NCBI RefSeq assembly: GCF_000519265.1
Contig: NZ_KI912608.1
Location: 3,463,421-3,527,420, forward strand
Reading direction: 5' to 3'
DNA: 64,000 bases
Source: Desulfonatronum lacustre DSM 10312
GTDB taxonomy: Bacteria > Desulfobacterota > Desulfovibrionia > Desulfovibrionales > Desulfonatronaceae
Position 1 is the stretch's first letter, and the number at the start of each line of letters is the position of its first letter. The translations under genes and the position numbers were made by a program. The notes beneath the pieces are model-generated. The model made no database searches. It had not been told where the DNA came from and saw only the letters and a program-made list of their open reading frames with translations. Shown one piece after another: positions 3,432-31,402 of this stretch.

Positions 3432-4842
<1,411 letters not shown>

Positions 4843-4859
4843 GGTGGCTCCTTTTTTTT

Positions 4860-13990: not shown

Positions 13991-14129
13991 TTCGTGGTTC
14001 GAGAACAAATCCGCCCCATGCGCCCTCGGAGTACAATGGATTGCCTTTTTGCGGGTTTCGAGCGTAAGGACGGCTTTTCATGTCAGGGGCTTCAATTGAC
14101 CGCTGAAACCAGCAAGCAGGAGCATGGCC

Positions 14130-16642: not shown

Positions 16643-16752
16643 GATCGGTATCGAAATCGTGATCGAAATCGAAGATCCTATCCAAGATAGATGGCGTAAT
16701 CACAGGGTGATGCACAACATTTTTCGATTTCGATCGCGATTTGGATTTTTGA
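16643..16752. repeat. Hexamer-built inverted-repeat element 6 (ATCGAA type)
   Basis: Left arm 16643-16673 and right arm 16723-16752 are complementary ATCGAA/ATCGTG runs. It lies between the transporter gene and the next gene on the same strand, in a gap of about 300 bp (16617-16920) that also holds the palindrome at 16874. Confidence 0.85.
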
Positions 16753-16873
16753 CGAGAACAGATTTGCCCTGTAACCGCGCTCAATCACCATGGACAATTT
16801 TCGCCAAGGCGACTACGTTTCCAGCCCAAAACGTGCTACCTTCTCTCCCTCGGTGGAGATGACGGGCCGCCCT

Positions 16874-16920: not shown

Positions 16921-19503
16921 ATGTTCATCAAGACACCAGATACGTCGGAATCAAACATTCGCCTTGAGCGCCAGGATTTGATCTCCCTGGAACCCGAACT
17001 GCGCCAAGCCATGGCCGGGTTCCTGTCGTTCTCCTCCTACGGCCTGTACTTTCCGGCCCATCCGCCCCAGGACATGCTCGTCGCCGACGATCAGGGGCAA
17101 CGCCTCGTTCCCGTCTATCACCCTCAGGAAAAGAAGGCCCTGCTGCCATTGCATCGCCATGGGGAGCTTTTGGGCATTTTCGTGGCTCGTAACGTGCCCG
17201 GCCGGGTGACCAAGAACACCCTTCACCTGTGGTCCTGCCTGTGCCATCAGATCATGGACAATCTGCTGCTGCACAAGAAGACCCAGGTGGACCCGCTCAC
17301 GGGTTTGGCCAACGCGGCTTGTCTGGAACAAAACCTGAACCGGGAGATTCGGCTGGTGCATCGCGGACTGTGGCCGGACACTCCGGGCAGCCTGGAGGAC
17401 GGGTTTTCCGAGTTCAGTGCCAGCGTGGGGCTGATCTGTCTGGATGTGGACGGGTTTTCCCGGATCAACGAGCGCTGGGGATACCAGTTCGGCGACCTGG
17501 TGCTCCAGGATCTGGCGCGGCTCGTCGTCCGCATGGCTCCGGAACAGGCCATCTGCGCGCGGTTGCGCGAGGATACCCTGGCCATCTGTTTTTCCGGAGC
17601 CACCACGACGAAGTGCCATCAATTGGCGTCGAACCTGGTCCGGGAAGTCTCGGAACTGCGCTGTGAAAACAAGATCAACGGCGAACGGGTCCGGCTCTCC
17701 GTCAGCCAGGGGTTCGTGACCTATCCTCAGGACTTTCATGGTCGGCAACTGCGGCGCTCGGTCCGGGAGCAGACCGGGTTGATGCTGGAAAAGGCCCGGA
17801 GGGCCCTGCGCGACGCCCAGGAGCACGGCCCGGGAAGAATTCGGGGCTTTTCCGGCATTCTCCGGGAAAGCGGGATCGTGCTGGACGTTTTGCCCATGAA
17901 CCGCGTTCTGGTCAGCCTGGGCCGCTCCGTGGACGCCCGGGAAGGGCAGCGCTTTCTCGTCTGGGCTGCGCCCGGGGAGAATGGTTTCGGTGCCGCCGCG
18001 CCCTTGGAGCCGGGAGGAAAAGAGGTGCCGCCGTCCCGGTTCTGCAAGGCTGAAATCCAGCTGATCGAGGTCCAGGGGGAGACCTCCGTGGCCGAGATCG
18101 TCCTGTTGCACGACCCAGCAGGCTGCGCCATCTTGCCGGAAGACCAGTTGACCATCCTGCACCCGGGAAGCTGGCAGGACGTGTTCGGCACCGTGAACGA
18201 GAGGAGGCGGGAACACCGAGCGATTCGTCAGGAAGACCAGCGTCAGGAAGATCAGGTTAGGGGCGAGGGCCCGGGGCCTGTTTTAGGGCTTGACGTCAAG
18301 GTGCGCGAACAGAAGCCTCGGGAGGCCGACGGCGAAGGTGAGCCGTCTCCCGAGGACGCGCGGGCTTGGATGCCCTTGCGGACCCAAGACTTCTCGCGGC
18401 ATTGGACGGACTTTCGTCAGAAGCATGCGCGGTTTGCCGTGATGTTGGCCTTTCTGGAAGGGGGCTCCGTGGAGTCGGAGCCGCTGGACCATGGCGACGT
18501 GGAGCGCAAGATGCATCAGCTCGGGGCCATGGCCGCGGAAAAACTGGGGCCGGATATGCTCCTCGGTCGGTTCAGCTTCAGCACCCTGGCCTGCCTGATT
18601 CCGGAGTCCGGCGCTCGGGACGTGGAGGATTCGGCAAAGGCCCTGGTCCGGGACGCCGAGGAAACGCTGCGCGGATCGGTTTACGTGGGCTTGGCGGAGT
18701 ATCCCTGGCTGAACTTCAACAAAGTGGATACGTTGGAGAACTGCCGCAAGGCCCTGGAGCACGCCCTGATGCTGCCTAAGCCCAACGCCGTGGTCTTCTG
18801 TTCCACCTCTCTGACGGTTAGCGCGGACCGGGCCTTTTCCAGCGGAGACATCTATTCCGCCGTGGAAGAGTACAAGCTGGCCCTGCTGGCGGAGGAGACC
18901 AACCTCATTGCCAGAAACTCCCTGGGAGTTTGCTATGCCCGGCTGGGCAAATACGGCGAGGCGTCGGCTCAGTTCGCGGCCATTCTGCGCCAGGCTCCGG
19001 ACGACATCATGGCCACCTACAACCAGGGCCATACCCTGCTGAAGCAGGGCGAGCCCGACCAGGCCCGGCACTTTTTCGAGCGCTGCCTGGAACTGGACCC
19101 GAAACACATCTTCAGCCTGATCCGCCTGGGGCAACTGGCCGAGCAGAGCGACGACATGGAGGCCGCGCGGGATTGTTACGCCCGGGCCCGCTCGCTCCCG
19201 GGCGGCGAAGGGCTGACCCACCGTCACCTGGCCCGGCTGGAATTGCGGGAAGGCAATCTCGAACAGGCACGGGAGCACCTGCATCAAGCCCTGGTACATA
19301 ACCCCAAGGACGCCCTGGCCATGCACCTGCTGGCCAAGATGTATCTCGAACAGGGCGAGGACGCGGAAATCGCCGAAACCCTGGCCAGGCAAAGCGTGGC
19401 CCTGTTTCCGGAACAGGGCGCGTACTGGGACGTGCTGGCCAAGGCCCTGGAAAGCCAGGGGCGCCATGAAGAGGCCGCGTTGGCCCGTGAACGGAGCGGT
19501 TAA
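16921..19503 (+). CDS. Protein with two degenerate GGDEF-like domains and C-terminal TPRs
   Basis: An 860-residue protein with no membrane helices. Residues about 120-315 form a GGDEF fold (DPLTGLANAACLEQNL, CLDVDGFSRINERWGYQFGD) but the catalytic signature reads REDTL (216-220) instead of GGDEF. A second, more worn copy seems to span about 480-630 (LGRFSFSTLACLIP, then GLAEYPWLNFNKVDTLENC..ALEHA). From about 634 to the end are five or six tetratricopeptide repeats. It is therefore probably a scaffold or nucleotide-sensing protein, not an active diguanylate cyclase. A stem-loop (TTGTTCAT/ATGAACAA, 19508-19546) follows the stop. Confidence 0.85.
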   Translation: MFIKTPDTSESNIRLERQDLISLEPELRQAMAGFLSFSSYGLYFPAHPPQDMLVADDQGQRLVPVYHPQEKKALLPLHRHGELLGIFVARNVPGRVTKNTLHLWSCLCHQIMDNLLLHKKTQVDPLTGLANAACLEQNLNREIRLVHRGLWPDTPGSLEDGFSEFSASVGLICLDVDGFSRINERWGYQFGDLVLQDLARLVVRMAPEQAICARLREDTLAICFSGATTTKCHQLASNLVREVSELRCENKINGERVRLSVSQGFVTYPQDFHGRQLRRSVREQTGLMLEKARRALRDAQEHGPGRIRGFSGILRESGIVLDVLPMNRVLVSLGRSVDAREGQRFLVWAAPGENGFGAAAPLEPGGKEVPPSRFCKAEIQLIEVQGETSVAEIVLLHDPAGCAILPEDQLTILHPGSWQDVFGTVNERRREHRAIRQEDQRQEDQVRGEGPGPVLGLDVKVREQKPREADGEGEPSPEDARAWMPLRTQDFSRHWTDFRQKHARFAVMLAFLEGGSVESEPLDHGDVERKMHQLGAMAAEKLGPDMLLGRFSFSTLACLIPESGARDVEDSAKALVRDAEETLRGSVYVGLAEYPWLNFNKVDTLENCRKALEHALMLPKPNAVVFCSTSLTVSADRAFSSGDIYSAVEEYKLALLAEETNLIARNSLGVCYARLGKYGEASAQFAAILRQAPDDIMATYNQGHTLLKQGEPDQARHFFERCLELDPKHIFSLIRLGQLAEQSDDMEAARDCYARARSLPGGEGLTHRHLARLELREGNLEQAREHLHQALVHNPKDALAMHLLAKMYLEQGEDAEIAETLARQSVALFPEQGAYWDVLAKALESQGRHEEAALARERSG

Positions 19504-19682
19504 GGCTTGTTCATGAAAGAGTTCTCGACGTCTCGGCGAATGAACAAAGCAATCTCTCTCTCATCAGACCGGCGAGGTGTCGCAGGTAGAAGACTGAGGA
19601 GGCTTCGAGGAAATGGGGCCGCCCCCTAAAGGGGACGACGTGAATCCGGCTTGTGCCTCGAAGCCGCGAAACAATGCAGCTC

Positions 19683-19848
19683 CATCAGGCAGGTCTCCCG
19701 GCTTGAGGATCATCCTACTTGCCACGCCTTCCCATCCGGCGGCAAAAAGCCGGACAGTGGCATATCGTGGCGTTCGTCCCCTTTCACGGTTGCGGGCCAG
19801 CGCCGGACTTTCACCGGACTTCCCATTTCATCCTTGCGGAACCTGACG
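19683..19848 (-). ncRNA. Cobalamin (adenosylcobalamin) riboswitch, no gene downstream
   Basis: The minus strand has the conserved cobalamin aptamer in order: closing stem CGTCAGG (19848-19842) with CCTGATG (19689-19683), TGGGAAGTCCGGTGAAAGTCC, CTGGCCCGCAACCGTGA, GCCACTG, GGGAAGGCG, GATGATCCTCAAGCCGGGAGACCTGCC. All core blocks are intact. Downstream on this strand (19682 to 19504) there is only an inverted repeat (GGCTTCGAGG/CCTCGAAGCC) and then the 3' end of the convergent GGDEF/TPR gene. No open frame follows. The B12-related gene it once controlled seems to be lost, or it controls a non-coding transcript. Confidence 0.92.
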
Positions 19849-19892
19849 GAGGAAAACGCACGGCCAACGCTTGCGCAGGCCGTGAGTTGCGT

Positions 19893-19921
19893 TATAAAAT
19901 ACAGGTTCTTTTTTCTGTCAA
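19893..19921 (-). promoter_or_regulatory. Promoter for the cobalamin riboswitch transcript
   Basis: A perfect -35 box TTGACA (19921-19916) lies 17 bp from TTTATA (19898-19893), overlapping TATAAC. This is about 45 bp ahead of the first aptamer stem, the normal distance for a riboswitch transcript, and argues that the unit is still transcribed. Confidence 0.65.
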
Positions 19922-20154
19922 GGGATTATTTTCCCACTTGCCGCTGAAATAAGAATACCATCCGCCAACTCAGATACGCATTCAAAGCCGGCTCACGCAG
20001 TTTAATGACCAGGTTCTCCTTCACTTTGCGGTTGGCCATGCAGATGTCCTTGTGGGTCGCCGACAGGCAGCCGTTTCGAAATAGAATTCTGGGAATCGCA
20101 AGCGCGATGATTCACGCCGTTTGAGGAGGCCGCTCTTCTACCAGCCCGGCCGCT

Positions 20155-20314
20155 GGGCGAACACAGCCGGCACGTTCCCCGCCGCCCCCTGTCAGATCGA
20201 AAAGGCTTTACCCTGATAGCAAATATCCGTGCCAACGCGACGGGCTTCTTGAACAATGGATTGAAACGACCTTTCAGGTCGTGTCAATCCTTGTGGGTTA
20301 GCCTTCTGGGTTAG
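20155..20314. repeat. 125-bp repeat, copy 1, within a long attC-like site
   Basis: Bases 20177-20301 recur at 23853-23977 with about seven mismatches and no gaps. Each copy contains a 15-bp hairpin (GGATTGA..ACGACCT, loop TTC, then the complement) and ends in GGGTTAG beside the 3' end of a cassette gene. Each also has GGCGAAC a little beyond its other end. On the minus strand these ends read as TAAC near the gene stop and GTTCGCC at the far side, resembling attC R'' and R' sites of a long (about 150 bp) type. The attC reading is tentative; the repeat itself is clear. The rest of the gap back to the riboswitch promoter (19922-20154) shows nothing certain. Confidence 0.6.
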
Positions 20315-20565
20315 CTGCCACCACGCCCCATTAGCCAGAGGGCCAGCAGCGGGACGGCATTGAATAGAATGATTCCGAGCTTGTAGGCACCCATGAGACC
20401 ATAGTGAATGGCGTCAAACTGCTCCGGCTGAAGCCGAAACCACTTGCCATGAAGCCTTTGAATTGAGTCCCGCGCAAACAGAAAAGCGATGAACCAGAAA
20501 AGCAGAACGCCGTAGTTGATCGCCAGTGAGTACAGCATGAAGTTCCAGAGGAACGCATCGTGCAT
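20311..20565 (-). CDS. Small two-helix membrane protein (DUF6868-like), cassette gene
   Basis: An 84-residue protein with two hydrophobic segments (about 8-28, LYSLAINYGVLLFWFIAFLF, and about 58-78, AYKLGIILFNAVPLLALWLM) separated by a charged loop with DSIQRLHGKWFRLQPEQFDAIHYGL. The loop and layout match small membrane proteins I associate with DUF6868, which are frequent integron cassette genes; that assignment is from memory and moderate. A GGAGAG site precedes the ATG. It lies between a clear attC upstream (20582-20684) and the 125-bp repeat downstream, so it is a single-gene cassette. Confidence 0.7.
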   Translation of the reverse strand: MHDAFLWNFMLYSLAINYGVLLFWFIAFLFARDSIQRLHGKWFRLQPEQFDAIHYGLMGAYKLGIILFNAVPLLALWLMGRGGS

Positions 20566-20581
20566 GGGTCTCTCCTGTGGC

Positions 20582-20684
20582 AGTTAACGGGCTCTCACGA
20601 CGCGGAAGCGTCGCGGGAACGCTTGGCTTTGCGGCGCACCGGAGCGTAGCGTAGGTGCGTCCGGCAACAGCCACTTGTTAGGCC
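20582..20684. repeat. Integron attC site
   Basis: On the cassette (minus) strand R'' is GCCTAAC (20684-20678) and R' is GTTAACT (20588-20582). The roughly 90 bases between are imperfectly self-complementary (for example GACGC..GCGTC and CGCTACGCTCCG). It lies between the stop of one cassette gene and the start of the next, as attC sites do. Confidence 0.8.
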
Positions 20685-20685
20685 T

Positions 20686-21288
20686 TTATCGTTCGACTGG
20701 GGCAAAAGCATTGTAACTAGGGTTTGCATCTTTTGCTCCCATTTGAAAAAGATAGAGGTTCTTATCGTTAATTAGCTTGATGGTGTGTGCGTTAAGCAGG
20801 TTAACTATTCGGTTTCGCCAGTCTTTGGCCTGCTCCTGATAATGCGGATAGTCTGTTTTAGTGCCATAGGGGTTATCAGCGTGCAGTATTCCGCCGCACT
20901 TCTCGTAAGCCTTAATAAACTGTTCTTTTGTTAGAAAATCATCTTTTCGATCCGCCCAATCAGAGGTGATACCCGGCGTTCTACTTGGGTTTTGTATGAT
21001 GGGGTGCGGATAAAAATCTGGATTGATGCGTTCTAGATCTTTTAGCATTAGCCTGGCATTCCAGTGCTCTGCAAATTTCTTGTGTTGGGCGGAATATATT
21101 TCTCTATTGGCAATTAAAGAGCTAAATGCAACCAGTTCTAGAATCTTTCTAATTTGCAAACAGACGGACTCAACGGTGGTTGGTAAGTAGAGTGCGTGGG
21201 CTTGACCATAAAGGAATGAATCTACGATAGCCATTCGCCGCTTGATCTCAATGAGAATTGCTCGGTATTTATCTTGTGATGAGTCCAT
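20686..21288 (-). CDS. Hypothetical cassette protein, 200 residues
   Basis: I do not recognise this family. The protein appears soluble, helical in the N-terminal half (MDSSQDKYRAILIEIKRRMAIVDSFL and QIRKILELVAFSSLIANREIYSAQHKKFAEHWNARLML), with a conserved-looking middle (GGILHADNPYGT) and no membrane segment. Base composition is visibly poorer in G and C than the flanking chromosomal genes. The stop is 2 bp from the attC R'' site and another attC lies just upstream of the start, defining a single-gene cassette. Confidence 0.75.
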   Translation of the reverse strand: MDSSQDKYRAILIEIKRRMAIVDSFLYGQAHALYLPTTVESVCLQIRKILELVAFSSLIANREIYSAQHKKFAEHWNARLMLKDLERINPDFYPHPIIQNPSRTPGITSDWADRKDDFLTKEQFIKAYEKCGGILHADNPYGTKTDYPHYQEQAKDWRNRIVNLLNAHTIKLINDKNLYLFQMGAKDANPSYNAFAPVER

Positions 21289-21295
21289 ATTTTTT

Positions 21296-21336
21296 GCCTA
21301 ACGGGCCGGATGGACGCAGTCAGCCCCTTGTTGGGC
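21296..21336. repeat. Short integron attC site overlapping the end of the upstream cassette gene
   Basis: On the minus strand R'' GCCCAAC (21336-21330), AAGGGGCTGA and R' GTTAGGC (21302-21296) delimit a 41-bp site; GGG/CCC next to the cores pair. The last seven or so codons of the coiled-coil gene run through it and its TAG is part of the R' core. It is shorter than most described attC sites. Confidence 0.72.
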
Positions 21337-21975
21337 GGCAGTTATATGTTCATGAATACTAGCCGTCGACCTCTTCAATTCTTCAGCGATGAATTCCTTG
21401 CTTGGACCGGAGAACGCGAGACCGAGACCAACAACACCTATGAAAAAGCTAACTAGCGCCACGACATAAGAGACGCGACTTTGTTTCTTAATTGAGGCGT
21501 GATCGCGTTTCATTTCCTGATACTCACCCAGCACTTTCGTTATTGGATGAAGTAACTCCTTGTCACTATCCTGCGAGGTTTCTTTGCAGATCAGAGATAG
21601 ACGCGCAAGCGATGGCCGAACTTCTTCTGGGAGTGATTCGAATGGCTCTGCTCTGTTTAGCTCGGACAGAAGCGACTTAAAGTGACTGTGTTGATCCTCT
21701 TCTTCTGCCTCCGAATACAATTCATATAGCGATTCGATTGACTGGACCGCTGACAGACCAAGGCCTCGACCGATATCAGAGATTTCGTTCGACTCGAGCT
21801 TGATGCCGTTTTGAAGTTTCTTCTTGATTTGATCTTTCAACTTGGCGCGCGCCTTCTCACGCCGATCTTTTTGTTCAAGAAGCAATGGGCGCATCAGCTG
21901 ACTAAGTGCAGCTGCTGCTACCGTAGCTGCTAACGCAGCTCCAAGTACTGGGAGTAATTCCGATATCATACTCAT
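21298..21975 (-). CDS. Hypothetical membrane protein with two helices and a coiled coil, cassette gene
   Basis: A 225-residue protein with an N-terminal helix (about 8-27, LPVLGAALAATVAAAALSQL), a long charged, helical cytoplasmic region (about 34-170), and a second helix (about 178-198, VSYVVALVSFFIGVVGLGLAF). The C-terminal tail CVHPAR is encoded by the attC site. The two-helix anchor with an internal coiled coil suggests a membrane-bound sensor or partner protein, but no function can be assigned. On its upstream side only half of an attC is recognisable (GCCCAAC at 21987-21993). Confidence 0.72.
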   Translation of the reverse strand: MSMISELLPVLGAALAATVAAAALSQLMRPLLLEQKDRREKARAKLKDQIKKKLQNGIKLESNEISDIGRGLGLSAVQSIESLYELYSEAEEEDQHSHFKSLLSELNRAEPFESLPEEVRPSLARLSLICKETSQDSDKELLHPITKVLGEYQEMKRDHASIKKQSRVSYVVALVSFFIGVVGLGLAFSGPSKEFIAEELKRSTASIHEHITAAQQGADCVHPAR

Positions 21976-22042
21976 GTCATCGTCTCGCCCAACGCAAAGC
22001 TAACCGGTGCGCCGAAGCACTATGGACTCGATATCTACACTG

Positions 22043-23767
22043 CTAACTTGTCACCCCTGCGGATTGAGCGTCCGGTTGAGCGCTTTGTTCGCAAGTTTCT
22101 GCTTCTGTCAAAGACCAGGTGGCGCCAGGACCTTTTCCCTGTCGTCGCACGAACTTGGTGTCCCGCAGAAACATACTTGTCTGTGAGGTGTGGTTGTGTC
22201 CTAGCAGTGCCTTGATATCGCTGTTTGGAGCACTTCTATGAATTTTTAGGAACATATACAGGTCTACATACTTACCGCTTGCTGGAGATAAGCGATATGT
22301 CTTCTGCACCTCAAAGAAATTATTCCAATCTGGCCGTGTACGAATGTAAACACCTGATTTGTCGCCACAGAATTGAACATAGGGAAGGTTATTTACTGCC
22401 ACCTTAATTTTTTCCCATGGGTCAGCCTCAATTTTACAGAGATGTGCTTCTAAAGATGACACTGGCACGAGACCTGTTTGGTAGACGGAATTCAGCACCA
22501 TGAATTCCGAGATCCCACAGACGTCCTTGTGAGTCTCACTCGTTACAAAGACCGCTGGCCGAATGTATTGTGCCTGCATTGTGACTATGACAGAATTATC
22601 CTGTTCCTCGAATGTCGGGAAGCCGCGACCGTAGCGCAATGAGTTCAAACTCATGCGAAAAACCCCCATCCCCGCGCGATCCACGAGGTGGTACTCCATC
22701 AACATTCGCGCTAAATTTTTGTTCCTGTGGCGAGGCTCATGTCGGAAGATATTTTCAGGGCGCACACCTCCATAGAAGATGCCCGGGCTTGTTATCGTCA
22801 ATTTGTCATCAAGAAATTCAACAGCAACCATTCCATCAAGGGAGTAATCACGGTGAACGAGGGCGTTCAGGAATGCCTCATGGAATGCTATTCGGTCGAG
22901 GAGTTGCACGCTGTACTTCGCCTTCTGAAATACGATTTCAGCCGGTGTGTTGCAATTCTCGAAATGTGTTTTTGCACGTTTTATTGTGTGCCAGAGACAA
23001 TCATCCCATACATCATTGATCAATAATTGCCCTGTTCTCGTTTTCCTGCTAAACCGATATTCAAAGTTACCGAGTTTCTCGCGGATAGTGGTTGCTTTGC
23101 CGAGAAGCAAGAGTCCTGATTTTGTCAGCCGACCATTCACGGTTACACCGATAGCTTCCAGAAAATCTGGGATTGTCGAGTTGGTAGTCTGTCGGCGCGA
23201 AGAGAAGTCCAAGAATGCTTCAGTCACTGCCTCGGTATCTAGGGCATTATCTGCGGTGATGTCGAGATATTCCGCACTCCAGTCATAGTCTTGAAGTGCC
23301 TTGACTGCCTTTGATATCTCATCAGGCTCCATTGCGCGACTGGATTTCCCATCACGTATACAGACCTTTCCTGATGTTGTTGACACGAGAGTATCGCGGT
23401 GCTTTGGAACGCAAATAATGAGATAGTTGCATCCCTCGAATGTGTACTGGGCTAAGCTCAAATTCTGCTTTGGCCTCAGCTTGCCTGAAAGACGCTCCTG
23501 AGTTGTATGCAAGTCAACGATCGGGAATCCAACAAGTTGATCAATCCAACGAGAGCACCGGATATCTGAGCTGTCACGGATTCCAACAATGATGTGTCCC
23601 CCACGATGGTTTGCAAGAGCGGAAAACTCCTCAGCTAGTTCCTTGGCGTTGTGCAGAGCTTGCTCTGAAGAATAAAGTTTAAATTCAAGAATATCGCTCT
23701 CCAAACGCTCGCTTGGAGTGGTCTTCAACTTCTGCAATATTGAAGCAATCTCTGCTTGCTGAATCAT
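22043..23767 (-). CDS. Schlafen/AlbA_2-domain protein with GHKL ATPase-like region, cassette gene
   Basis: A 574-residue soluble protein. Residues about 20-130 form an AlbA_2 (Schlafen-type nucleic-acid-binding) domain: LESDILEFKLYSSE, EEFSALANHRGGHIIVGI and CIRDGKSSRAMEPDEI. Residues about 290-390 match the C-terminal ATPase-like region of these proteins (AFHEAFLNALVHRDYS, TSPGIFYGGVRPENIF, NKNLARMLMEYHLVDRAGMGVFRM). A C-terminal extension follows. Such proteins are annotated as putative ATP-dependent DNA helicases or regulators and often lie on mobile DNA; a defence role is possible but unproven. It is the largest cassette in the array. Confidence 0.85.
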   Translation of the reverse strand: MIQQAEIASILQKLKTTPSERLESDILEFKLYSSEQALHNAKELAEEFSALANHRGGHIIVGIRDSSDIRCSRWIDQLVGFPIVDLHTTQERLSGKLRPKQNLSLAQYTFEGCNYLIICVPKHRDTLVSTTSGKVCIRDGKSSRAMEPDEISKAVKALQDYDWSAEYLDITADNALDTEAVTEAFLDFSSRRQTTNSTIPDFLEAIGVTVNGRLTKSGLLLLGKATTIREKLGNFEYRFSRKTRTGQLLINDVWDDCLWHTIKRAKTHFENCNTPAEIVFQKAKYSVQLLDRIAFHEAFLNALVHRDYSLDGMVAVEFLDDKLTITSPGIFYGGVRPENIFRHEPRHRNKNLARMLMEYHLVDRAGMGVFRMSLNSLRYGRGFPTFEEQDNSVIVTMQAQYIRPAVFVTSETHKDVCGISEFMVLNSVYQTGLVPVSSLEAHLCKIEADPWEKIKVAVNNLPYVQFCGDKSGVYIRTRPDWNNFFEVQKTYRLSPASGKYVDLYMFLKIHRSAPNSDIKALLGHNHTSQTSMFLRDTKFVRRQGKGPGATWSLTEAETCEQSAQPDAQSAGVTS

Positions 23768-23792
23768 ACAACATCCTCAACTTGTTTGTGTT

Positions 23793-23979
23793 TGGCGAAC
23801 GCCGCTAATCAGCCGCGCGGCTTTTTACGTCGGCTGCATTAGCCTGGTTGTACCCCGCCTCCCCCTGCCAGACCGAAAAAGCTTTACCCTAATAGCAAAT
23901 ATCCGTGCCAACGCGGCGGGCTTCTTGAACAATGGATTGAAACGACCTTTCAGGTCGTGTCAATCCTTATGGGTTAGGC
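23793..23979. repeat. 125-bp repeat, copy 2, within a long attC-like site
   Basis: The repeat proper is 23853-23977, about 94 percent identical to 20177-20301. On the minus strand it begins with a perfect R''-type core GCCTAAC (23979-23973), into which the HNH gene runs, and ends near GTTCGCC (about 23801-23795). Between the repeat and that end is a hairpin, GCTAAT-CAGCCG pairing with CGGCTG-c-ATTAGC (about 23804-23842), with one unpaired base as in attC sites. CGTTCGCC(T/A)AAC occurs at both outer ends of the segment. Confidence 0.6.
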
Positions 23980-25016
23980 GAACGAAAATATGACTGATTG
24001 CCTAAAAGCCATTTTGAATCAACTGTCCGACCAACAAGTTTTTCAATAAAGCTAGATTCAGCACTTGCGTTCGGAAAAGACAGACCACGCTTTATCTCAG
24101 CGCCTTCGATATAGACATACATATTTTCATAAAGATAATCACACCCCATCAAACACACCGGCATTACAATATATGGGTCTAATCGTTCTGCATCATTACA
24201 ATCTGATCTCGGCTTTTTATGTGCGGCGACTAAAGTATTTACGCTGAACTCTAATCCGCAAACAGCGCAGTTTTCATGCGTTTTATCCTTAAATAGCCAC
24301 TCTTGTAATATGCGCTGTTCTCTTCTTGCTATTTGCTCTCTTGTTTCATCCGTCCCGGCTTCTAGAAGCTTTCTTAGTCTACGAAGATAATTTTCATAGG
24401 CATCAACACCTAAACCATCATCCTGTGCGGCAGCTCGATGGCCAACAAGGCTGTATACATAATGCCTTCGACCTTTAGTCTTATCTACATATACTAACGG
24501 TGAAAAATTTGTTGTTTTTAGTATGTGTGGTCTTCCATAACATTTATTAGATAAGTATTTATCAAGATCAGGAAATGATGCGCTTTGACCATGGGTAAAG
24601 GATGATACCAAATCCTCTTCTATTCCATTAAGCTTTGTGGTTTCGCCTATAAATTTTAACCCATGATCAGTGTTAGCCATGTATACAGAACTTCTTAAGT
24701 ATTCCTCGATAATTTCTGTAGGCGGGTACGGATACTTATAGCTCCTACCATCTAGGGCATTTCTATACGTTTCTGCCAGCCTAGTTATGTTGCAATATTC
24801 AACAATACCAAAAACTTTTTCGCTATAGTTGATAATGGTGTTATCTCTGTTCTCAAAAATATACCAGTAGCCATCGCCAATCACACGAACCCAAGACGTA
24901 GGCGAGCTTTCAATTAATAATGCAACGAGCGAATAGTATTGACCAAGCTCCTCTCTCAAATAATTTAAGTTCGCAATACCACAACGACCTGGTAAGCCTT
25001 GTGCTTTTTTGAGCAA
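23967..25016 (-). CDS. HNH-type nuclease candidate, cassette gene
   Basis: A 349-residue protein from a TTG start. The C-terminal part has an HNH-like zinc site: Cys250-x2-Cys253, AAHKKPRS (264-271, His266), and Cys288/Cys292 before a loop. The N-terminal 200 residues contain no domain I recognise. The start is doubtful: the same frame stays open upstream to a TGA at 25116-25118, overlapping the sigma-4-like gene, and has no ATG, GTG or TTG before 25016. The stop lies inside the attC-like repeat. It is much AT-richer than the host genes, indicating transfer. No attC separates it from its upstream partner. Confidence 0.72.
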   Translation of the reverse strand: MLKKAQGLPGRCGIANLNYLREELGQYYSLVALLIESSPTSWVRVIGDGYWYIFENRDNTIINYSEKVFGIVEYCNITRLAETYRNALDGRSYKYPYPPTEIIEEYLRSSVYMANTDHGLKFIGETTKLNGIEEDLVSSFTHGQSASFPDLDKYLSNKCYGRPHILKTTNFSPLVYVDKTKGRRHYVYSLVGHRAAAQDDGLGVDAYENYLRRLRKLLEAGTDETREQIARREQRILQEWLFKDKTHENCAVCGLEFSVNTLVAAHKKPRSDCNDAERLDPYIVMPVCLMGCDYLYENMYVYIEGAEIKRGLSFPNASAESSFIEKLVGRTVDSKWLLGNQSYFRSPNP

Positions 25017-25096
25017 CTTCCTAATATCTTTAACAATGGAATTCCTGATTAAGAATATATTCTTGCTGGTTGCAATCGAGTTTCTCGTGGCTCGTT

Positions 25097-25498
25097 TTAA
25101 TTCTGGAGTGTAAATTCAAAATCACAATCAAGGTTTACATCATCAATTAGATTAAATATTCCTTTTAAATGACGCCCCCTATCGATTAGTCCAGCCTCAC
25201 AAACTTCGTTTTCAAGCTCTGAGAAAAGCCAAAAGTCTTTGGACTGCAAAGTTTGAACAAAATCATTTAAAGAAGGAATAGAATGTTTGGTGACATTGTC
25301 TCTGAACTTGGAATTAAGCAGCTGCCTGATTCTTTCTCTGGTGCCAACACCAAATTGGCTTGCAGTTTCCTCTAATGTAGGCCAAGGCGATTCATTTAGG
25401 CCATAGTAAAATTTTACAATTTCAATATCCCTTGCCTTATTGGCTCCATCCTTGATGCTGCTTTCTAGGAATTCTACTAATTCATTTTCAATGCCCAT
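25097..25498 (-). CDS. Small sigma-70 region-4-like HTH protein, partner of the HNH gene
   Basis: A 133-residue protein. Residues 39-62 (WPTLEETASQFGVGTRERIRQLLNSKF) match the region-4 helix-turn-helix of sigma-70 factors, which reads EEIG..FGVTRERIRQIE. No region 2 is present, so it is unlikely to be a sigma factor; it may bind DNA or RNA polymerase. The C-terminal 60 residues are unrecognised. The gene shares a cassette with the HNH gene, whose frame overlaps its 3' end. An attC lies immediately upstream. Confidence 0.75.
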   Translation of the reverse strand: MGIENELVEFLESSIKDGANKARDIEIVKFYYGLNESPWPTLEETASQFGVGTRERIRQLLNSKFRDNVTKHSIPSLNDFVQTLQSKDFWLFSELENEVCEAGLIDRGRHLKGIFNLIDDVNLDCDFEFTLQN

Positions 25499-25521
25499 CT
25501 ACACTCCTTGACCGAGGAATT

Positions 25522-25600
25522 GCCTAACGCCACGGCTCACAGGCGGCAAACTCGCAGCGAAGCGAAGAGTTTGACGTCCTAGTGCAGCCGATTGTTAGAT
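25522..25600. repeat. Integron attC site
   Basis: On the minus strand R'' is ATCTAAC (25600-25594) followed by AATCGGCTGCA, and R' is GTTAGGC (25528-25522) preceded by TGAGCCGTGGC. The centre can pair (GCAAACTC/GAGTTTG). It is strongly similar to the attC at 26876-26952, as expected for sites of one integron lineage. The TAA of the AAA ATPase gene is part of R''. Confidence 0.88.
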
Positions 25601-26860
25601 CGCTCCCCACTTTAGATAGAAAGCAAAGAACGGATCAGTGATATGCAGTTTTTGCTCTTCTTTTTCCCAATCAATAACTGGCGTAGATGCTTCATCGCTT
25701 GCAGCTATCTCGGCCATGCGTTCCAACACGCGCGAAACCTCGTGAGCTTGGGGAGGTGTTTCATCAAGAACTTGACGAATTGCCGCCCGTAGGTGTTCAT
25801 ATTCAATAGTTTCCAAGCCCGGGGCTAAGACGCTAAGTGCCTTTAATACGACTCCATAAATATCTGCAGAACCACCATCACTTAAAGCACGTTGAAGACG
25901 GTCGGAACGTTGGCGTGGGCCTTTCGACAGCTTGTCATATATTACTTTCCCCGTACCCTCAGCAGCTTGATGATATAGGTCATCATCTACGGATGAAATT
26001 GTAATTCTAGATCGAGACGTCTCTATCAATCCTTCTTGGAATGCACGACGCTGACAAAATTCCTGCATTAAGTGAGGACTGCCATAGGCTTGCGAAGCGA
26101 ACTGGCGCCCGATGCCTGGTGCTAATCGTGCGTTAAGGAGAGGAAAACCTGTGATTGGGATCAACTCTAGCTCTTCGAGAGACCACGACGGAACTTCGAT
26201 ATCTTCGATGCGACCAGTCATTTCCCTTTCTACTCTCACTGCGTCGTATCTTCGATGAGGGATCGCAATCAGGACGACCGGCAACCCTTCAAATATGAGA
26301 GGTTTCAACGCACGAATGACTGATCCTTGAAAGGCTCTATCTAAATAGTGGAAATCGTCTACAACGATAGAACCATCAAAATCTCGTAGCGCACGAAGTG
26401 CTGCTGTTCTAGGAGTTAGCTCAAGTTTTTTGCCCTTCCCGCTCGAACTGGCCTTCATCAATCCGGTTTTTGTTTTTCCCTTAACATCGGCGACAAAGGG
26501 AACCCCAACGCCACCCTGCACTTCACCATCAACTGATTTTGTACTGGAAGAGCTACTGTTTTCCTCCAGCGTTGTGGCCTCTCCGAGTTCATGAAGAATT
26601 GTCGTCCAAAAATCATTTTCAGACGCTACGCTACCCCCATCTATCCAGATATTTTGCCCGACGTCAGCCCTCGGAAGGACGGTGTTCACCAATACAGTTT
26701 TTCCGGACTTTGTCTGGCCCGTAACGGTGATTAGTTTGTGGAGATTTTCAACGGCGTTGCGTAACGAAGCTTCAAGTTTGATAGCCTCGCGAGGAACGTA
26801 AGTTAATCTCGGCATGCCGCCTGGAACAAAAACCTTGGATGTTTTGTATTTTCTCACCAT
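25595..26860 (-). CDS. AAA/STAND-like ATPase, cassette gene
   Basis: A 421-residue protein. Walker A is GQTKSGKT (48-55) and Walker B SIVVDD (164-169), followed by an ORC/Cdc6- or DUF234-like helical domain. The C-terminus LHITDPFFAFYLKW resembles the end of archaeal-type ATPases of that group. A Ser-rich loop (about 101-110) and a Lys/Gly-rich segment (about 126-146) lie between Walker A and B. Such lone ATPases on mobile DNA are often antiviral sensors, but no effector domain is visible. It lies between two well-formed attC sites and is thus a single-gene cassette. Confidence 0.82.
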   Translation of the reverse strand: MVRKYKTSKVFVPGGMPRLTYVPREAIKLEASLRNAVENLHKLITVTGQTKSGKTVLVNTVLPRADVGQNIWIDGGSVASENDFWTTILHELGEATTLEENSSSSSTKSVDGEVQGGVGVPFVADVKGKTKTGLMKASSSGKGKKLELTPRTAALRALRDFDGSIVVDDFHYLDRAFQGSVIRALKPLIFEGLPVVLIAIPHRRYDAVRVEREMTGRIEDIEVPSWSLEELELIPITGFPLLNARLAPGIGRQFASQAYGSPHLMQEFCQRRAFQEGLIETSRSRITISSVDDDLYHQAAEGTGKVIYDKLSKGPRQRSDRLQRALSDGGSADIYGVVLKALSVLAPGLETIEYEHLRAAIRQVLDETPPQAHEVSRVLERMAEIAASDEASTPVIDWEKEEQKLHITDPFFAFYLKWGAI

Positions 26861-26875
26861 CTCTTCCTTTTAATG

Positions 26876-26952
26876 GTCTAACGCCCGGCTCACGCGCCGG
26901 TTTGGAGCCGCGAAGCGGCGTAAATCGGTCGCTGTGCAGCCGATTGTTAGTT
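26876..26952. repeat. Integron attC site
   Basis: On the minus strand the site starts at AACTAAC (26952-26946) followed by AATCGGCTGCA and ends with R' GTTAGAC (26882-26876) preceded by TGAGCCGGGC. The central GCCGC..GCGGC pairs. It shares both L-box regions with the attC at 25522-25600. It separates the ATPase cassette from the hypothetical gene to the right. Confidence 0.85.
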
Positions 26953-26965
26953 TATATACTTGGGC

Positions 26966-27877
26966 TCAATTGTTTTTAGCCTTGTCAAATTCCTCAAAAA
27001 AACGAATTACCATCAAAAAAAGAGATGGAAACATATTTCTAAGCTGATGGTTATAATCCTCCCATGATTCTGTTGGATGTGGAATTGGGTTCCAACCTGC
27101 ATCTTGTTGCCGGAGTGACATGGAGCCTAAATTATAAGGAGGGTCTGGGAAAATTGAAAAAGGCATGGTCGTAATAAATATTGCCTTTGACAAAGTAAAA
27201 TATGATGACTTTAAAGGCTCTATTATAACAGAGGTTTCCGGATCACCATTCCAATCCGAAAGTGTTTCATGATAATCGGCTATGAATGTTGGATGTGCGA
27301 CAAGACTTAGTTTTTGCTTTAAATCCTTTATCTGGTCTTCCATCCCCCCAATCCAGCTAAACCCTCCTTCTTGCAGCTGTTTTTTTAGGTAACGCTCCGT
27401 CTTTTCTTTCGATAGGTATTTGTGCCAGAACTCATTTGCAGTTTCGGGAGTGGTACAAGCTGTGTAGTCACCTAGAATATCATGATCGATTCTAAAGCGT
27501 ACCCAAAGTTGAGCCGTCTCGTAGAGCAGCCGAAGTTGAAGCCTAGCATTTGCATCAAGCCCATAGCCACATAAAACGCGAATTGACGTCAATGTGCGCA
27601 ACAGACGAATGCTGAGTCGATAAAATGTCATTGCTGAAGGGAAAATTTTATGATCCGCTGAGAGAAAATAGACACTTTGGCATCGCAGAAGAACTATATA
27701 TTCGTCCACAAAAGCGTATAAGGCAGCGTATGGAGCGTTTCTTATATCAACTCCAAGTTCGTTTTGAACGTGATTTCCAGGAACAGCATCACTCAACTGA
27801 AAACCCCGATTCTGATAGATGAGTCGAATCGAATTTTTTGCGTGCTGATGAGATAAGTATTCAGGCATGTCTCTCAT
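26966..27877 (-). CDS. Hypothetical helical cassette protein, 303 residues
   Basis: I do not recognise the family with confidence. The protein is largely helical with no signal or membrane segment. The block LRTLTSIRVLCGYGLDANARLQLRLLYETAQLWVRFRI recalls DUF5677-type proteins, but this is only a resemblance. The gene is AT-rich compared with the chromosome. Upstream of its start an AACTAAC (27890-27896; minus-strand GTTAGTT) marks the outer cassette boundary, and an attC lies just downstream of the stop. It is the outermost visible cassette. Confidence 0.72.
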   Translation of the reverse strand: MRDMPEYLSHQHAKNSIRLIYQNRGFQLSDAVPGNHVQNELGVDIRNAPYAALYAFVDEYIVLLRCQSVYFLSADHKIFPSAMTFYRLSIRLLRTLTSIRVLCGYGLDANARLQLRLLYETAQLWVRFRIDHDILGDYTACTTPETANEFWHKYLSKEKTERYLKKQLQEGGFSWIGGMEDQIKDLKQKLSLVAHPTFIADYHETLSDWNGDPETSVIIEPLKSSYFTLSKAIFITTMPFSIFPDPPYNLGSMSLRQQDAGWNPIPHPTESWEDYNHQLRNMFPSLFLMVIRFFEEFDKAKNN

Positions 27878-27889
27878 ACTCTCGTGTGA

Positions 27890-28285
27890 AACTAACAGTG
27901 TTATTATGCGGAACTCACAAAATCCGCCCCTCCAAATTCACGGCCTTCACACCTGCTGATTTGGCAAACACTTTTTAAAAATTTGCCAGCATTTGCCACA
28001 TTATTCCAAAGTGTTGATGGACGCCTGTCAAATCCTTCATGACTCCGAAGTCAGCTTTATGCCTTCTCCTGAGGTCAGCTTTATGCAGCAGCCATAAGTT
28101 CATTCACCATACGGGACATAAAACCAACCTCGGATAAAAAATGATGGACGCATCGGGATGGTTCCACGCACATCGTCAACCATCGACAAATTTCAGCGCT
28201 GGCTTGAAAAAACTGATGAATACCAAATGTTGAGTCCCATAAACCACATTTGGGATGGAAGCAATCGGAATGGTTCGGAGAATTG
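27890..28285. other. Intergenic stretch right of the cassette array
   Basis: This stretch of about 400 bp carries no convincing gene. At its left end AACTAAC could be the R' core of the array. A 13-bp direct repeat, GTCAGCTTTATGC, occurs at 28050-28062 and 28074-28086. A TTGGCAAA/TTTGCCAG inverted repeat lies around 27960-28000. No integron integrase or recognisable fragment of one was found on either strand. Confidence 0.5.
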
Positions 28286-28323
28286 AAAATAAAAAAGCCC
28301 GACCCTGAATATCAAGGTCGGGC
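28286..28323 (-). terminator. Rho-independent terminator
   Basis: On the minus strand GCCCGACC (28323-28316) and GGTCGGGC (28304-28297) form an 8-bp GC stem around an 11-base loop, followed by TTTTTTATTTT. It lies 100 bp beyond the stop of the XRE regulator gene and separates it from the cassette array. Confidence 0.85.
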
Positions 28324-28422
28324 CGTCATGCATATGATCTCTGGGTGGTCGGGTTGAAGCAAGGGGGGGAGGGAGAGTTGGCGGCTGAAAGTCAGGGCAC
28401 GAAAGCGACAGCGCCCAGGGTC

Positions 28423-28764
28423 TCAGTGGGATAGAAAACGCCGAGGCTCCACGTTCAGAACCTTGCCCAGCAACTCCGCATGCCCGTGGCCGATAGGTCT
28501 CTTGCCCTGCTCCATCTCAGACAAATGCCGCCGCGAAATGCCGGTCAGATCCGAGAGCTGCTTCTGCGTCAGGCTTTCCCTGTAGCGAGCCCCGGACAAA
28601 ACCGTCCAAGGCGTCAACGGGGGAAGGATCGCGGTTGCGTCACAGGAGTCGTCGTCAACGATGCACCCCTGTCTTGCAAGATATTCCTTGATATCATGCG
28701 TCTTTTCAGCGGGACAGGTGACTCGGAATAGATCAATAGGGGGCTTTTTCATGTGTTCCGACAT
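28423..28764 (-). CDS. XRE-family helix-turn-helix regulator
   Basis: A 113-residue protein whose C-terminal half is an XRE HTH: SLTQKQLSDLTGISRRHLSEMEQGKRPIGHGHAELLGKVLNVEPRRFL (about 63-111). The N-terminal 55 residues (FRVTCPAEKTHDIKEYLARQGCIVDDD) form a small unrecognised domain, seen in other short regulators and antitoxins. No toxin partner is adjacent, so a toxin-antitoxin role is not supported. It ends at the terminator near 28300. Confidence 0.82.
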   Translation of the reverse strand: MSEHMKKPPIDLFRVTCPAEKTHDIKEYLARQGCIVDDDSCDATAILPPLTPWTVLSGARYRESLTQKQLSDLTGISRRHLSEMEQGKRPIGHGHAELLGKVLNVEPRRFLSH

Positions 28765-28787
28765 AGGTCACCTCGACAAATCAAATA

Positions 28788-28817
28788 ACGCCGCGTCGAG
28801 TGCATCCGACGCGGCGT
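28788..28817. other. 11-bp-stem hairpin upstream of the XRE gene
   Basis: ACGCCGCGTCG (28788-28798) and its exact complement (28807-28817) form a strong stem with an 8-base loop, 24 bp ahead of the XRE start. It has no T-run on either side, so it is more likely an operator or a processing site than a terminator. Confidence 0.5.
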
Positions 28818-28870
28818 AAAGATTCAAGCCCGCCGAATAAAACCCGGCGTTAAAGAGTAATCAACCCGAA

Positions 28871-28990
28871 TCAGGCCACCTCGACCACTTCCAGGTCAAA
28901 GGTCAGGTTTTCTCAGGCCAGGAGCTGGTTGGCGTCCAGGGTCTGGCGACGGATTGTTCCACCCTCCAGCGTGTCTACACGGACTAGGCG
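28871..28990 (-). pseudogene. Remnant of a SlyD-like FKBP peptidyl-prolyl isomerase
   Basis: The minus strand ends with codons for DANQLLA, a TGA, then ENLTFDLEVVEVA and the natural stop at 28871-28873. Intact SlyD proteins end in a very similar DGNHPLAGKNLTFDVEVVEV. The glycine codon between LA and the next residue has become a stop, and the upstream sequence (to about 28990) no longer reads as FKBP. It is the decayed 3' end of a gene in a low-density stretch. Confidence 0.55.
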
Positions 28991-29126
28991 CTCCAGTGCA
29001 CCGTTATGGCTCGGGGTGAACGACAAACACCGATCAGTCAGGGCTATTCGGGAGCTTCCTGAGAATGAAAAGACCACAAATGCTCAATAATATCCAAAGA
29101 GCAGGGTTTCATCGGTTTCCAATTCG

Positions 29127-29174
29127 CGACGCTGGAGCGTCGGGAGCTGCGTTTCCACGCTGGAGCGTGGGAAC
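29127..29174. repeat. Pair of GCTGGAGC palindromes (REP-like)
   Basis: Two adjacent palindromes, CGACGCT-GG-AGCGTCG (29127-29142) and GTTTCCACGCTGGAGCGTGG followed by GAAC (29151-29174), share the same core. This motif family is widespread as intergenic REP-like sequence in many proteobacteria. It lies in a stretch of about 300 bp (28991-29275) without a gene. Confidence 0.6.
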
Positions 29175-29275
29175 GATCCTGTTCCTGTACAGCCTGTGGG
29201 TGCGGTTCGGGCGGAGAAGCAGGAAGCAAGGAGAAACATGATGGGCAATCAATCACAACATAAGAGGGTGTTTTT

Positions 29276-29452
29276 CTATGGCCAGCGGTACTCAGCGCAG
29301 TCATCAACGAACCGTTTGCAGTCATTTGCGCTGCTTTTTTGGCCAGCACCGACGAATCGGTACCAGCCAGGTTCTTCGACGATAATCGCAACATGGCGAA
29401 GTGAAGCCACTCCGGTAAGTACTCCCGCGGCCAGGAGCAAACGGTCGCTCAT
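29276..29452 (-). CDS. Short membrane-protein remnant, 58 residues
   Basis: A frame from ATG 29452 to TAG 29276-29278 reads MSDRLLLAAGVLTGVASLRH.. and continues VEEPGWYRFVGAG. A hydrophobic helix followed by a PGWYRFFGAG-like motif occurs at the N-terminus of small four-helix proteins of about 130 residues. Here it stops after one helix, so it is probably a truncated gene. No clear Shine-Dalgarno is seen. It may equally be chance. Confidence 0.35.
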   Translation of the reverse strand: MSDRLLLAAGVLTGVASLRHVAIIVEEPGWYRFVGAGQKSSANDCKRFVDDCAEYRWP

Positions 29453-29543
29453 TTGGTGTGGGTTGGCCTTTCGTTGTTGCTGGAAGTACCTTCTTCCTCC
29501 CTATTTCCGAAAGTTTAACGACCGGAGCGATCTGGGGTGAGCC

Positions 29544-29759
29544 TCAGAAACCAGCATTCACCTGGATGCAGTCCTTGGGACAGTAGGCAGCGGCCTTGCG
29601 CAGGTCCTCTTCGGGGCCTTGGCTTGTTTTCAGATAGGGGAGTTCCGTAGTTTCATCCCAGCCGAACACTTCCGGGCACAGCTCCACGCAGGCTTGGCAA
29701 CTGGTGCAGTGTTCCAGATCAAGGTTCGCTTCGGCAAGGGGAAGAGAAGGGGCGGGCAT
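29544..29759 (-). CDS. Ferredoxin, Desulfovibrio gigas type
   Basis: A 71-residue soluble electron carrier. Cys18-x2-Cys21-x2-Cys24-x3-Cys28-Pro and a distant Cys60-Pro provide the ligands of one [4Fe-4S] (or [3Fe-4S]) cluster, as in D. gigas ferredoxins I and II, where an additional cysteine pair forms a disulfide. The second half lacks a second full motif, so only one cluster is expected. It probably serves low-potential electron transfer in the cytoplasm. Confidence 0.9.
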   Translation of the reverse strand: MPAPSLPLAEANLDLEHCTSCQACVELCPEVFGWDETTELPYLKTSQGPEEDLRKAAAYCPKDCIQVNAGF

Positions 29760-29983: not shown

Positions 29984-31402
29984 TTACGGGGTCAGCACCT
30001 TGGCCAGGACTTTGCCCGCCAGGGCGTGTTCCGCGTCGTCCAGGGTGCGGGGGTCCAGGCAGAAGGCGTCGTGTTCGATGCGACCGATCAGGGGCGGATC
30101 GGTGTCCAGAAGGGCGTCGCGCAGTGCTTCCACCCCGATGTCCGCATTCTGAGGGCGGACAGCCACCAGGGTTGTGGGCAGATCCCGCTCCGGATACGCC
30201 CCGCCGCCCACTCGGGAAGCTCCGGGAAGCAGTGTGATTTCGGCTTTTGCGCCCCCCCCAGGTCCTCTTAAGGCCCGGCGCAAGCCGCGGGCCAGTTTGC
30301 TTGCTTGCCGCCGCAGCTCCTCGGTCGACGCGGTGATCATCCGCAGGGTCGGGATTTCCCGGCGGGCCAGTTCCGGGTCCAGGTAGAGGCGCAGCGTGGC
30401 CTCCAGGGCGGCTAGGGTCATTTTGTCGATGCGCAGGGCCCGGTTCATGGGATTCTTCTTGATCGGGTCGATGTAGTCCTTGCGGCCCACGATGATTCCG
30501 GCCTGGGGCCCGCCCAGGACCTTGTCCCCGCTGAAGGTGACCACCGCGGCCCCGGCGGCCACGGCCTCCTGAACCGTGGGCTCGTGGTCCAGACCGTAGG
30601 GCGTGAAGTCGAACAGGTTGCCGCTGCCCAGATCCTCCAGCACCGGCAGTCCGTGCTTCTCGCCCAGCGCGACCATCTCCCTCAGCCCGACCTCCTTGTG
30701 AAAACCGATGATCCGGAAGTTCGAGGTATGCACCTTGAGCAGGGCCGCGGTTTCCGGAGTGATGGCCCGTTCGTAGTCATGCGAATGGGTGCGGTTGGTG
30801 GCCCCCACTTCCCGCAGTACGGCCCCGCTCTTGGCCATGACGTCCGGAATGCGGAACGAGCCGCCGATCTCCACCAACTGCCCCCGGGAAACCACCACCT
30901 CCTTGCCCTTGGCCAGGGTGTCCAGCATCAGCAGCACCGCCGCGGCGTTGTTGTTCACCACCAGTCCGGCCTCGGCCCCGGTCAGCCGGCACAGCAGCTC
31001 CTCCACATGGGCGTAACGGCTGCCGCGCTGGCCCGTATCCAGGGAAAATTCAAGATTCGAGTAGTGGGCGCAGGCTTCGGTTACGGCCTCCACGGCTTGG
31101 CGGGCCAGCAGGGACCGGCCCAGGTTGGTGTGCACCACCACGCCCGTGGCGTTGATCACCCGCCGGAAATGCGGCCTGGACGCCCGATCCAGAAAGGCGT
31201 GCAGCGGGCCTTCCAGGACGGACCATTGCAGTTCTTCGGAGGCGGTCAGTTTCTGCCCACGAATGTCCACCCGCAACTGATCCAGGTGCATGTTGACGAG
31301 GTCCTTGAGCAGGGGGCGCGGCAGGCGCGCGTAGCGATCGGACTCCGAGACCCGTTGCAGAATCAGGTCCACGGAGGGCAGCATACGATACAGTTCAGAC
31401 AT
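29984..31402 (-). CDS. selA: L-seryl-tRNA(Sec) selenium transferase SelA
   Basis: SelA is a PLP enzyme that turns Ser-tRNA(Sec) into Sec-tRNA(Sec) with selenophosphate, so the organism makes selenoproteins. The 472-residue protein has INATGVVVHTNLGRSLL near residue 85, EDLGSGNL near 257, and the PLP lysine Lys294 in TFSGDKVLGGPQAG, equivalent to Lys295 of E. coli SelA. Length is normal. selB, selC and selD are not in the window. The repeat at 29833 lies just beyond its stop. Confidence 0.97.
   Translation of the reverse strand: MSELYRMLPSVDLILQRVSESDRYARLPRPLLKDLVNMHLDQLRVDIRGQKLTASEELQWSVLEGPLHAFLDRASRPHFRRVINATGVVVHTNLGRSLLARQAVEAVTEACAHYSNLEFSLDTGQRGSRYAHVEELLCRLTGAEAGLVVNNNAAAVLLMLDTLAKGKEVVVSRGQLVEIGGSFRIPDVMAKSGAVLREVGATNRTHSHDYERAITPETAALLKVHTSNFRIIGFHKEVGLREMVALGEKHGLPVLEDLGSGNLFDFTPYGLDHEPTVQEAVAAGAAVVTFSGDKVLGGPQAGIIVGRKDYIDPIKKNPMNRALRIDKMTLAALEATLRLYLDPELARREIPTLRMITASTEELRRQASKLARGLRRALRGPGGGAKAEITLLPGASRVGGGAYPERDLPTTLVAVRPQNADIGVEALRDALLDTDPPLIGRIEHDAFCLDPRTLDDAEHALAGKVLAKVLTP

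What the first reader, a model, noticed from the sequence alone, without database searches (positions are those of the whole stretch)
19683..19921. Complete cobalamin riboswitch and promoter with no gene behind it
All conserved aptamer blocks and a TTGACA-17-TTTATA promoter are intact, yet downstream the strand runs only into the 3' end of the convergent GGDEF/TPR gene. Either the controlled B12 gene was lost, perhaps in the event that brought the cassette array, or the riboswitch controls a non-coding or antisense RNA, as known for B12-controlled RNAs of ethanolamine genes in Listeria and Enterococcus. An intact aptamer with no gene argues for selection.
Basis: partly seen in the sequence, partly recalled or inferred. 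Interest (0 to 1): 0.68.

Follow-up and report, generated by a model that had tools for sequence, protein, structure and literature searches.

The report
Vitamin B12 riboswitch severed from btuB
An apparently intact vitamin-B12 sensor RNA stands in front of no gene because the DNA breaks off inside its on/off hairpin, just before the place where relatives carry an outer-membrane receptor gene, so it is most likely a recent leftover and not a new kind of regulator.

Summary
In detail: window 19861..19671 (minus strand) is a full-length Rfam Cobalamin aptamer (113 bits, E 1.6e-27), a TTGACA promoter lies upstream, and no minus-strand gene follows. Relatives explain it. In same-genus genome G002 an 89%-identical stretch (271 aligned bases, window 19863..19596) is followed by a TonB-dependent (btuB-type) receptor gene, and so are the best 12 of 12 matches outside the genus. 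Homology in the window ends at 19596, inside the expression platform: the 5' arm of the terminator is kept; its 3' arm (also the ribosome site), T run, start codon and gene are absent. The window's genome has no match to that receptor or its barrel family. The fragment lies at the left end of a ~10-kb low-GC insert. In none of seven same-genus genomes was this leader found behind the GGDEF/TPR gene, and no nearby terminator was found, so an antisense or small-RNA role is unsupported. The orphan shows no excess of changes, which fits recent loss as well as selection. Verdict: an ordinary decapitated btuB-type riboswitch, with a small remaining chance of re-use as an antisense RNA.

The parts
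19893..19921 (-). Sigma-70-like promoter: TTGACA (19921..19916), 17-base spacer, TTTATA (19898..19893); TATAAC at 19896..19891 is an alternative -10
   Evidence: sequence; TTGACA and TTTAT at the same spacing in G002; not flagged by the consensus scan
19671..19861 (-). Cobalamin riboswitch aptamer (RF00174), full length
   Evidence: cmscan 113 bits, E 1.6e-27; 91% identical to the btuB-type aptamer of G002
19596..19670 (-). Surviving 5' half of the expression platform: GGCTTCGAGG...AAGCC hairpin, its distant partner CCTCGAAGCC, and the 5' arm (CCTCC) of the terminator
   Evidence: homology to G002 ends at 19596; same elements in relatives; the remainder still folds well, z -3.3
19504..19595 (.). 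92 bases between the break and the GGDEF/TPR stop codon; in relatives the leader continues here with terminator 3' arm, ribosome site and receptor gene
   Evidence: no match in the other 7 same-genus genomes; no terminator-like site
16921..19503 (+). Convergent GGDEF/TPR gene, 860 aa; not thought to be the riboswitch's target
   Evidence: Pfam GGDEF and TPR; orthologues in 7 of 7 same-genus genomes without this leader behind them
19504..29546 (.). About 10-kb lineage-specific insert with the orphan leader at its left end; GC about 37-55%
   Evidence: in relatives the GGDEF/TPR gene is followed by ferredoxin and/or SelA, which in the window lie at 29547..29735 and 29984..31402 (Pfam names); GC

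Best explanation
This is the severed 5' leader of a btuB-type gene, that is, a gene for a TonB-dependent outer-membrane receptor, presumably for vitamin B12. In the intact arrangement (G002 and relatives) the RNA starts at the promoter; with B12 bound, a terminator forms whose 3' arm is also the ribosome site, so the receptor is not made; without B12 it is made. In the window the DNA after the terminator's 5' arm (19596) has been lost or replaced, taking the terminator 3' arm, ribosome site, start codon and gene. The fragment now lies at the left end of a ~10-kb insert beside the GGDEF/TPR gene. If still transcribed, it would give a leader RNA that may bind B12 but has no output. Shown by sequence: aptamer, homologues with receptor, break, missing receptor, insert. 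Inferred: ligand binding, transcription, the direction of the switch, the receptor's substrate, and arrival of the leader from another lineage.
For: G002 carries an 89%-identical leader (271 aligned bases, window 19863..19596) followed after 29 bases by the ATG of a 648-aa TonB-dependent receptor (Pfam Plug and barrel, run on residues 2-648). In an order-level search of 297 genomes the best twelve matches outside the genus are L090-L101; 12 of 12 have Plug plus barrel downstream (10, L100, L097). In 12 of 12 platforms read (G002, ten loci, L097) a CCTCC arm faces GGAGG, then a T-rich stretch and a start codon; L094's was not printed. G002's terminator region folds better than all 200 shuffles (z -4.0). 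The window's homology stops right after the CCTCC arm. The window's genome has no match to the receptor and none to PF00593 (the family rang in 3 of 14 control genomes). Its other two cobalamin riboswitches precede NrdG/NrdD and CbiK/CbiM (Pfam). A ~10-kb low-GC stretch separates GGDEF/TPR from ferredoxin/SelA, which follow it directly in 6 of 7 relatives in one form or another. The orphan and G002 aptamers are 91% identical, against 66% and 68% for the Nrd and Cbi riboswitches of G006, whose GGDEF/TPR protein is about as distant as G002's.
Against: Only one same-genus genome carries this leader, and on another contig beside other genes, so no before/after comparison at this very place exists; the receptor may never have stood here. 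The link between the loss and the insert is positional. Most relatives are draft assemblies (84-99% complete), so a leader could be missed. The case for transfer rests on few comparisons, and Nrd and Cbi riboswitch identities to other same-genus genomes range from 64% to 96%. Weaker order-level matches, mostly to the aptamer core, have mixed neighbours by eye. The receptor's substrate is not tested.
Confidence: 0.87

Rival explanations
1. Antisense-acting riboswitch: transcription from 19921 runs leftwards into the 3' end of the GGDEF/TPR gene and lowers its expression unless B12 stops the transcript, as described for Listeria pocR.
For: The geometry is right: the aptamer ends 167 bases from the 3' end of a convergent gene. 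The mechanism is described for a cobalamin riboswitch at pocR and proposed in other genomes (PMC9943018, passages).
Against: The terminator arm that would make the antisense RNA B12-dependent is missing. A tolerant scan found no terminator-like site between 19700 and 18724 on that strand; it found three further in, at 18723, 18543 and 18314, inside the coding region. In none of 7 same-genus genomes was this leader found behind the GGDEF/TPR gene. The sequence's origin is explained by btuB.
Confidence: 0.05
2. Free-standing B12-controlled small RNA acting in trans, like the ANTAR-binding RNAs Rli55/EutX.
For: An intact aptamer and promoter without a gene.
Against: In Rli55/EutX (from memory; papers seen only in the listing) the aptamer is joined to hairpins that bind an ANTAR protein. 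Here the structure beyond the aptamer is the remainder of the btuB platform shared with gene-bearing relatives. Neither eut genes nor ANTAR proteins were searched for.
Confidence: 0.03
3. The break is an assembly error and the receptor gene is really there.
For: Cannot be tested here without reads.
Against: The genome is one 3.76-Mb contig, 99.7% complete; both flanks of the insert continue into conserved gene order; no receptor match exists anywhere in the genome.
Confidence: 0.03

Closest known systems
Cobalamin riboswitch leader of TonB-receptor (btuB-type) genes in the same order: G002 and L090-L101 (RF00174)
   Same: Full aptamer, platform hairpin with its distant partner, 5' arm of the terminator; promoter spacing as in G002
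   Different: Lacks the terminator 3' arm with the ribosome site, the start codon and the receptor gene
Antisense-acting cobalamin riboswitch of Listeria monocytogenes pocR (PMC9943018, passages seen)
   Same: Cobalamin riboswitch converging on the 3' end of another gene
   Different: That one has a B12-controlled terminator, a B12-related target, and is found in other Listeria; here the terminator is incomplete and the arrangement is in no relative examined
Fortuitous convergent riboswitches beside pseudogenes and transposases (categories f and g of PMC9943018, passages seen)
   Same: Riboswitch left in a convergent position by a change nearby, with no advantage proposed
   Different: Here the missing target gene and the break inside the platform can be named

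Membership tests
Cobalamin riboswitch (RF00174) | Full-length match to the covariance model over the gathering score | tested here: met
   113 bits against 31.5, positions 1-189 of 189
Cobalamin riboswitch (RF00174) | Binds a cobalamin | not testable with these tools
   needs in-line probing or a similar assay
Working btuB-type riboswitch | Complete terminator/ribosome-site hairpin in the expression platform | tested here: not met
   homology stops after the CCTCC arm at 19596; no terminator-like site from 19700 to 18724
Working btuB-type riboswitch | TonB-dependent receptor gene downstream | tested here: not met
   no such ORF; no receptor match in the genome
Antisense-acting riboswitch | Converges on the 3' end of a gene | tested here: met
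   aptamer ends 167 bases from the end of the plus-strand gene 16921..19503
Antisense-acting riboswitch | Ligand-controlled terminator ahead of the convergent gene | tested here: not met
   3' arm absent; tolerant scan, which finds sites in 13 of 13 control leaders, finds none from 19700 to 18724
Antisense-acting riboswitch | Arrangement conserved in relatives | tested here: not met
   not found in 7 of 7 same-genus genomes, most of them drafts
Trans-acting B12 RNA (Rli55/EutX type) | ANTAR-target hairpins and an eut operon | not tested
   definition recalled; no eut or ANTAR search was made

The most novel reading that the evidence does not exclude
After losing btuB the leader was put to a new use: its transcript, running into the 3' end of the GGDEF/TPR gene, dampens that gene or ties it to B12, a riboswitch re-used as an antisense RNA soon after gene loss.
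Probability: 0.05. Interest if true: 0.5.

Novelty: new member of a known kind. Interest (0 to 1): 0.2.

Why it matters
It shows that a full-length, high-scoring riboswitch without a gene need not mean a new regulatory RNA: a relative names the lost gene, and the break lies in the expression platform, not in the aptamer. A survey that calls antisense-acting riboswitches from position and aptamer score could list this locus, so checking that the platform is complete would be a cheap filter.

Tried and rejected
Short hidden gene downstream: rejected; only a 53-codon frame overlapping the aptamer, and 19490-19600 matches nothing in the other 7 genomes of the genus.

Decay in the aptamer as a sign of age: loop L5 of the orphan reads GGTGAAAG where G002 has GGTGCAAG, but at least three intact order-level loci (L094, L095, L096) also have A there, so this is not damage. 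Placing the 30 differences from G002 by a crude majority rule gives 5 on the orphan side, 12 on the G002 side and 13 unclear, using 8 outgroup loci of which L090 and L091 are near-duplicates; L092, L094 and L096 were dropped because the script did not find their platform motif. There are too few changes to test selection.

Terminator scan: the consensus scan found no site in 17500-20000, but as a control it also missed G002's own bulged terminator and that of L100 and found that of L095, so by itself it proves little. A tolerant scan reports hairpin-plus-T sites in 13 of 13 control leaders, though in some only the first two, not the platform terminator, were printed; in the window it reports none from 19700 to 18724 and three beyond.

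An error of mine, mended: the first listing printed only ORFs ending above position 1400 and so hid the receptor of L097; searches show it.

Transfer on a plasmid: 23 of 72,556 plasmid records matched; in the 20 listed at most 18% of the query is covered, within the aptamer.

Cassette array: a strict scan for paired attC core sites in 19500-29600 found one imperfect pair (the same place on both strands) and none in 34 kb of control. The best integron-integrase matches in the genome are below the cut-off. The array reading is left open.

Literature: searches for orphan, lone, solitary or remnant riboswitches and for cobalamin riboswitches with btuB or antisense listed no paper that by its title concerns this locus; one search returned none. 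Only passages of PMC9943018 and PMC11124144 were seen; all else was listings.

Full report
Check. The whole-window Rfam scan gives a single match, the Cobalamin riboswitch at 19861..19671 on the minus strand, full length, 113 bits. The genome is one 3.76-Mb contig with three such riboswitches. The other two precede an NrdG/NrdD pair and CbiK/CbiM cobalt genes (Pfam names, where NrdG shows as a radical-SAM protein). The third has no minus-strand gene after it: 167 bases, then the 3' end of the plus-strand GGDEF/TPR gene.

Organism.

What the leader belongs to. A DNA search of the genus (the window's genome and seven others) found an 89%-identical stretch of 271 aligned bases in one of them, G002. 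It covers the aptamer and the first part of the expression platform and ends at window 19596. In G002, after 29 more bases, a 648-aa TonB-dependent receptor begins (Plug and barrel by Pfam, run without the first Met). On the opposite strand behind it are genes for an ABC ATPase, a FecCD-type permease and a periplasmic binding protein, as in B12 uptake but not specific to it. An order-level search of 297 genomes found matches in 51, the window's own and G002 included. The best twelve outside the genus are L090-L101, and 12 of 12 have a TonB receptor downstream by Pfam. The weaker match L106 has one too; other weaker matches, mainly to the aptamer core, have mixed neighbours by eye.

The platform. 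In G002 and the eleven of these loci whose platform was printed, the stretch between aptamer and start codon has one layout: a GGCTTCGAGG...AGCC hairpin, a distant CCTCG-type partner, then a hairpin whose 5' arm holds CCTCC and whose 3' arm holds GGAGG, a T-rich stretch and the start codon (for L097 only the last hairpin was printed). So the terminator's 3' arm is also the ribosome site. G002's terminator region folds better than all 200 shuffles (z -4.0). The window keeps everything up to the CCTCC arm and nothing after it; what is left still folds well (z -3.3). The simple terminator scan finds nothing in 17500-20000, but it also misses G002's own terminator; a tolerant scan finds no site between 19700 and 18724 and three further into the coding region. 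How B12 shifts the balance is inferred, not shown.

Where the gene went. The window's genome has no match to the G002 receptor and none to the barrel family PF00593. Behind the GGDEF/TPR gene relatives have a convergent ferredoxin (G002, G005, G006, G007), with SelA next in G007; G001 and G003 have SelA directly; the stretch taken from G004 has neither. In the window ferredoxin (29547..29735) and SelA (29984..31402) are still there, in this order, but about 10 kb lie between them and GGDEF/TPR. GC in that stretch is about 37-55%; it is 60-65% within the GGDEF/TPR gene and 62-68% on the right, though it falls to 56% further left. The orphan leader is the left end of the stretch. A second contig in the G007 bin (C392) has yet other DNA after a nearly identical gene end, so this place may be prone to rearrangement.

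Age and selection. The orphan and G002 aptamers are 91% identical, while the Nrd and Cbi riboswitches of the window's genome are 66% and 68% identical to those of G006, whose GGDEF/TPR protein is about as far away (61-65%) as G002's (61-67%). For the other same-genus genomes the values are 76-96% (Nrd) and 64-86% (Cbi). This hints that the leader moved between lineages, but the comparisons are few. Of 30 differences from G002, 5 are placed on the orphan side, 12 on the G002 side and 13 are unclear. An orphan long free of constraint should show the reverse. Recent loss explains this without selection; selection is not excluded.

Rivals. Antisense control of GGDEF/TPR is the best rival, because a cobalamin riboswitch in this position is known (Listeria pocR) and more are proposed (PMC9943018, passages). 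The same paper describes convergent riboswitches beside pseudogenes that it considers fortuitous. Here the terminator is incomplete and none of seven same-genus genomes shows the arrangement. A trans-acting RNA of the Rli55/EutX kind has no support beyond the absence of a gene.

Conclusion.

Noticed in passing
G000:C1:1156934-1157121 (L001/L004) and L070-L075: A cobalamin riboswitch stands in front of NrdG/NrdD (anaerobic ribonucleotide reductase) in the window's genome and in G001, G003, G004, G005, G006 and G007 (tblastn).
   Followed up: partly
window 20301..20167 and 23977..23850, minus strand: A ~130-base intergenic repeat, 94% identical between the two copies and 90-93% identical to one place each in G003, G004 and G005. 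It holds a hairpin and TTGGCACG-N4-TTGC, which resembles a sigma-54 promoter (consensus recalled). No common downstream gene was seen by eye.
   Followed up: partly
window ~13811-14008, 15419-15613, 16659-16862; L005 1594-1680; L062: Intergenic runs of ATCGAAATCG-like units (SKSKSLSKSE in one frame) recur near several genes of this genome and of G005, seen by eye in ORF lists.
   Followed up: no
L063 (G007:C392): Second contig in the G007 bin with a GGDEF/TPR 3' end 99% identical in protein to the window's over 125 residues, but followed by different DNA: another rearrangement at the same place, or a second strain in the bin.
   Followed up: no
L062, first ~20 bases (end of contig G005:C59): Read outward from the gene, the contig ends in CTGTCTCTTATACACATCT, which looks like a sequencing-library adapter left in the assembly (recalled).
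   Followed up: no
L069 (G005:C18), riboswitch 4788..4974 minus: G005 has its own cobalamin riboswitch in front of a TonB-dependent receptor (Pfam), only about 55% identical to the orphan, so btuB-type control exists in another lineage of the genus by a different leader.
   Followed up: partly
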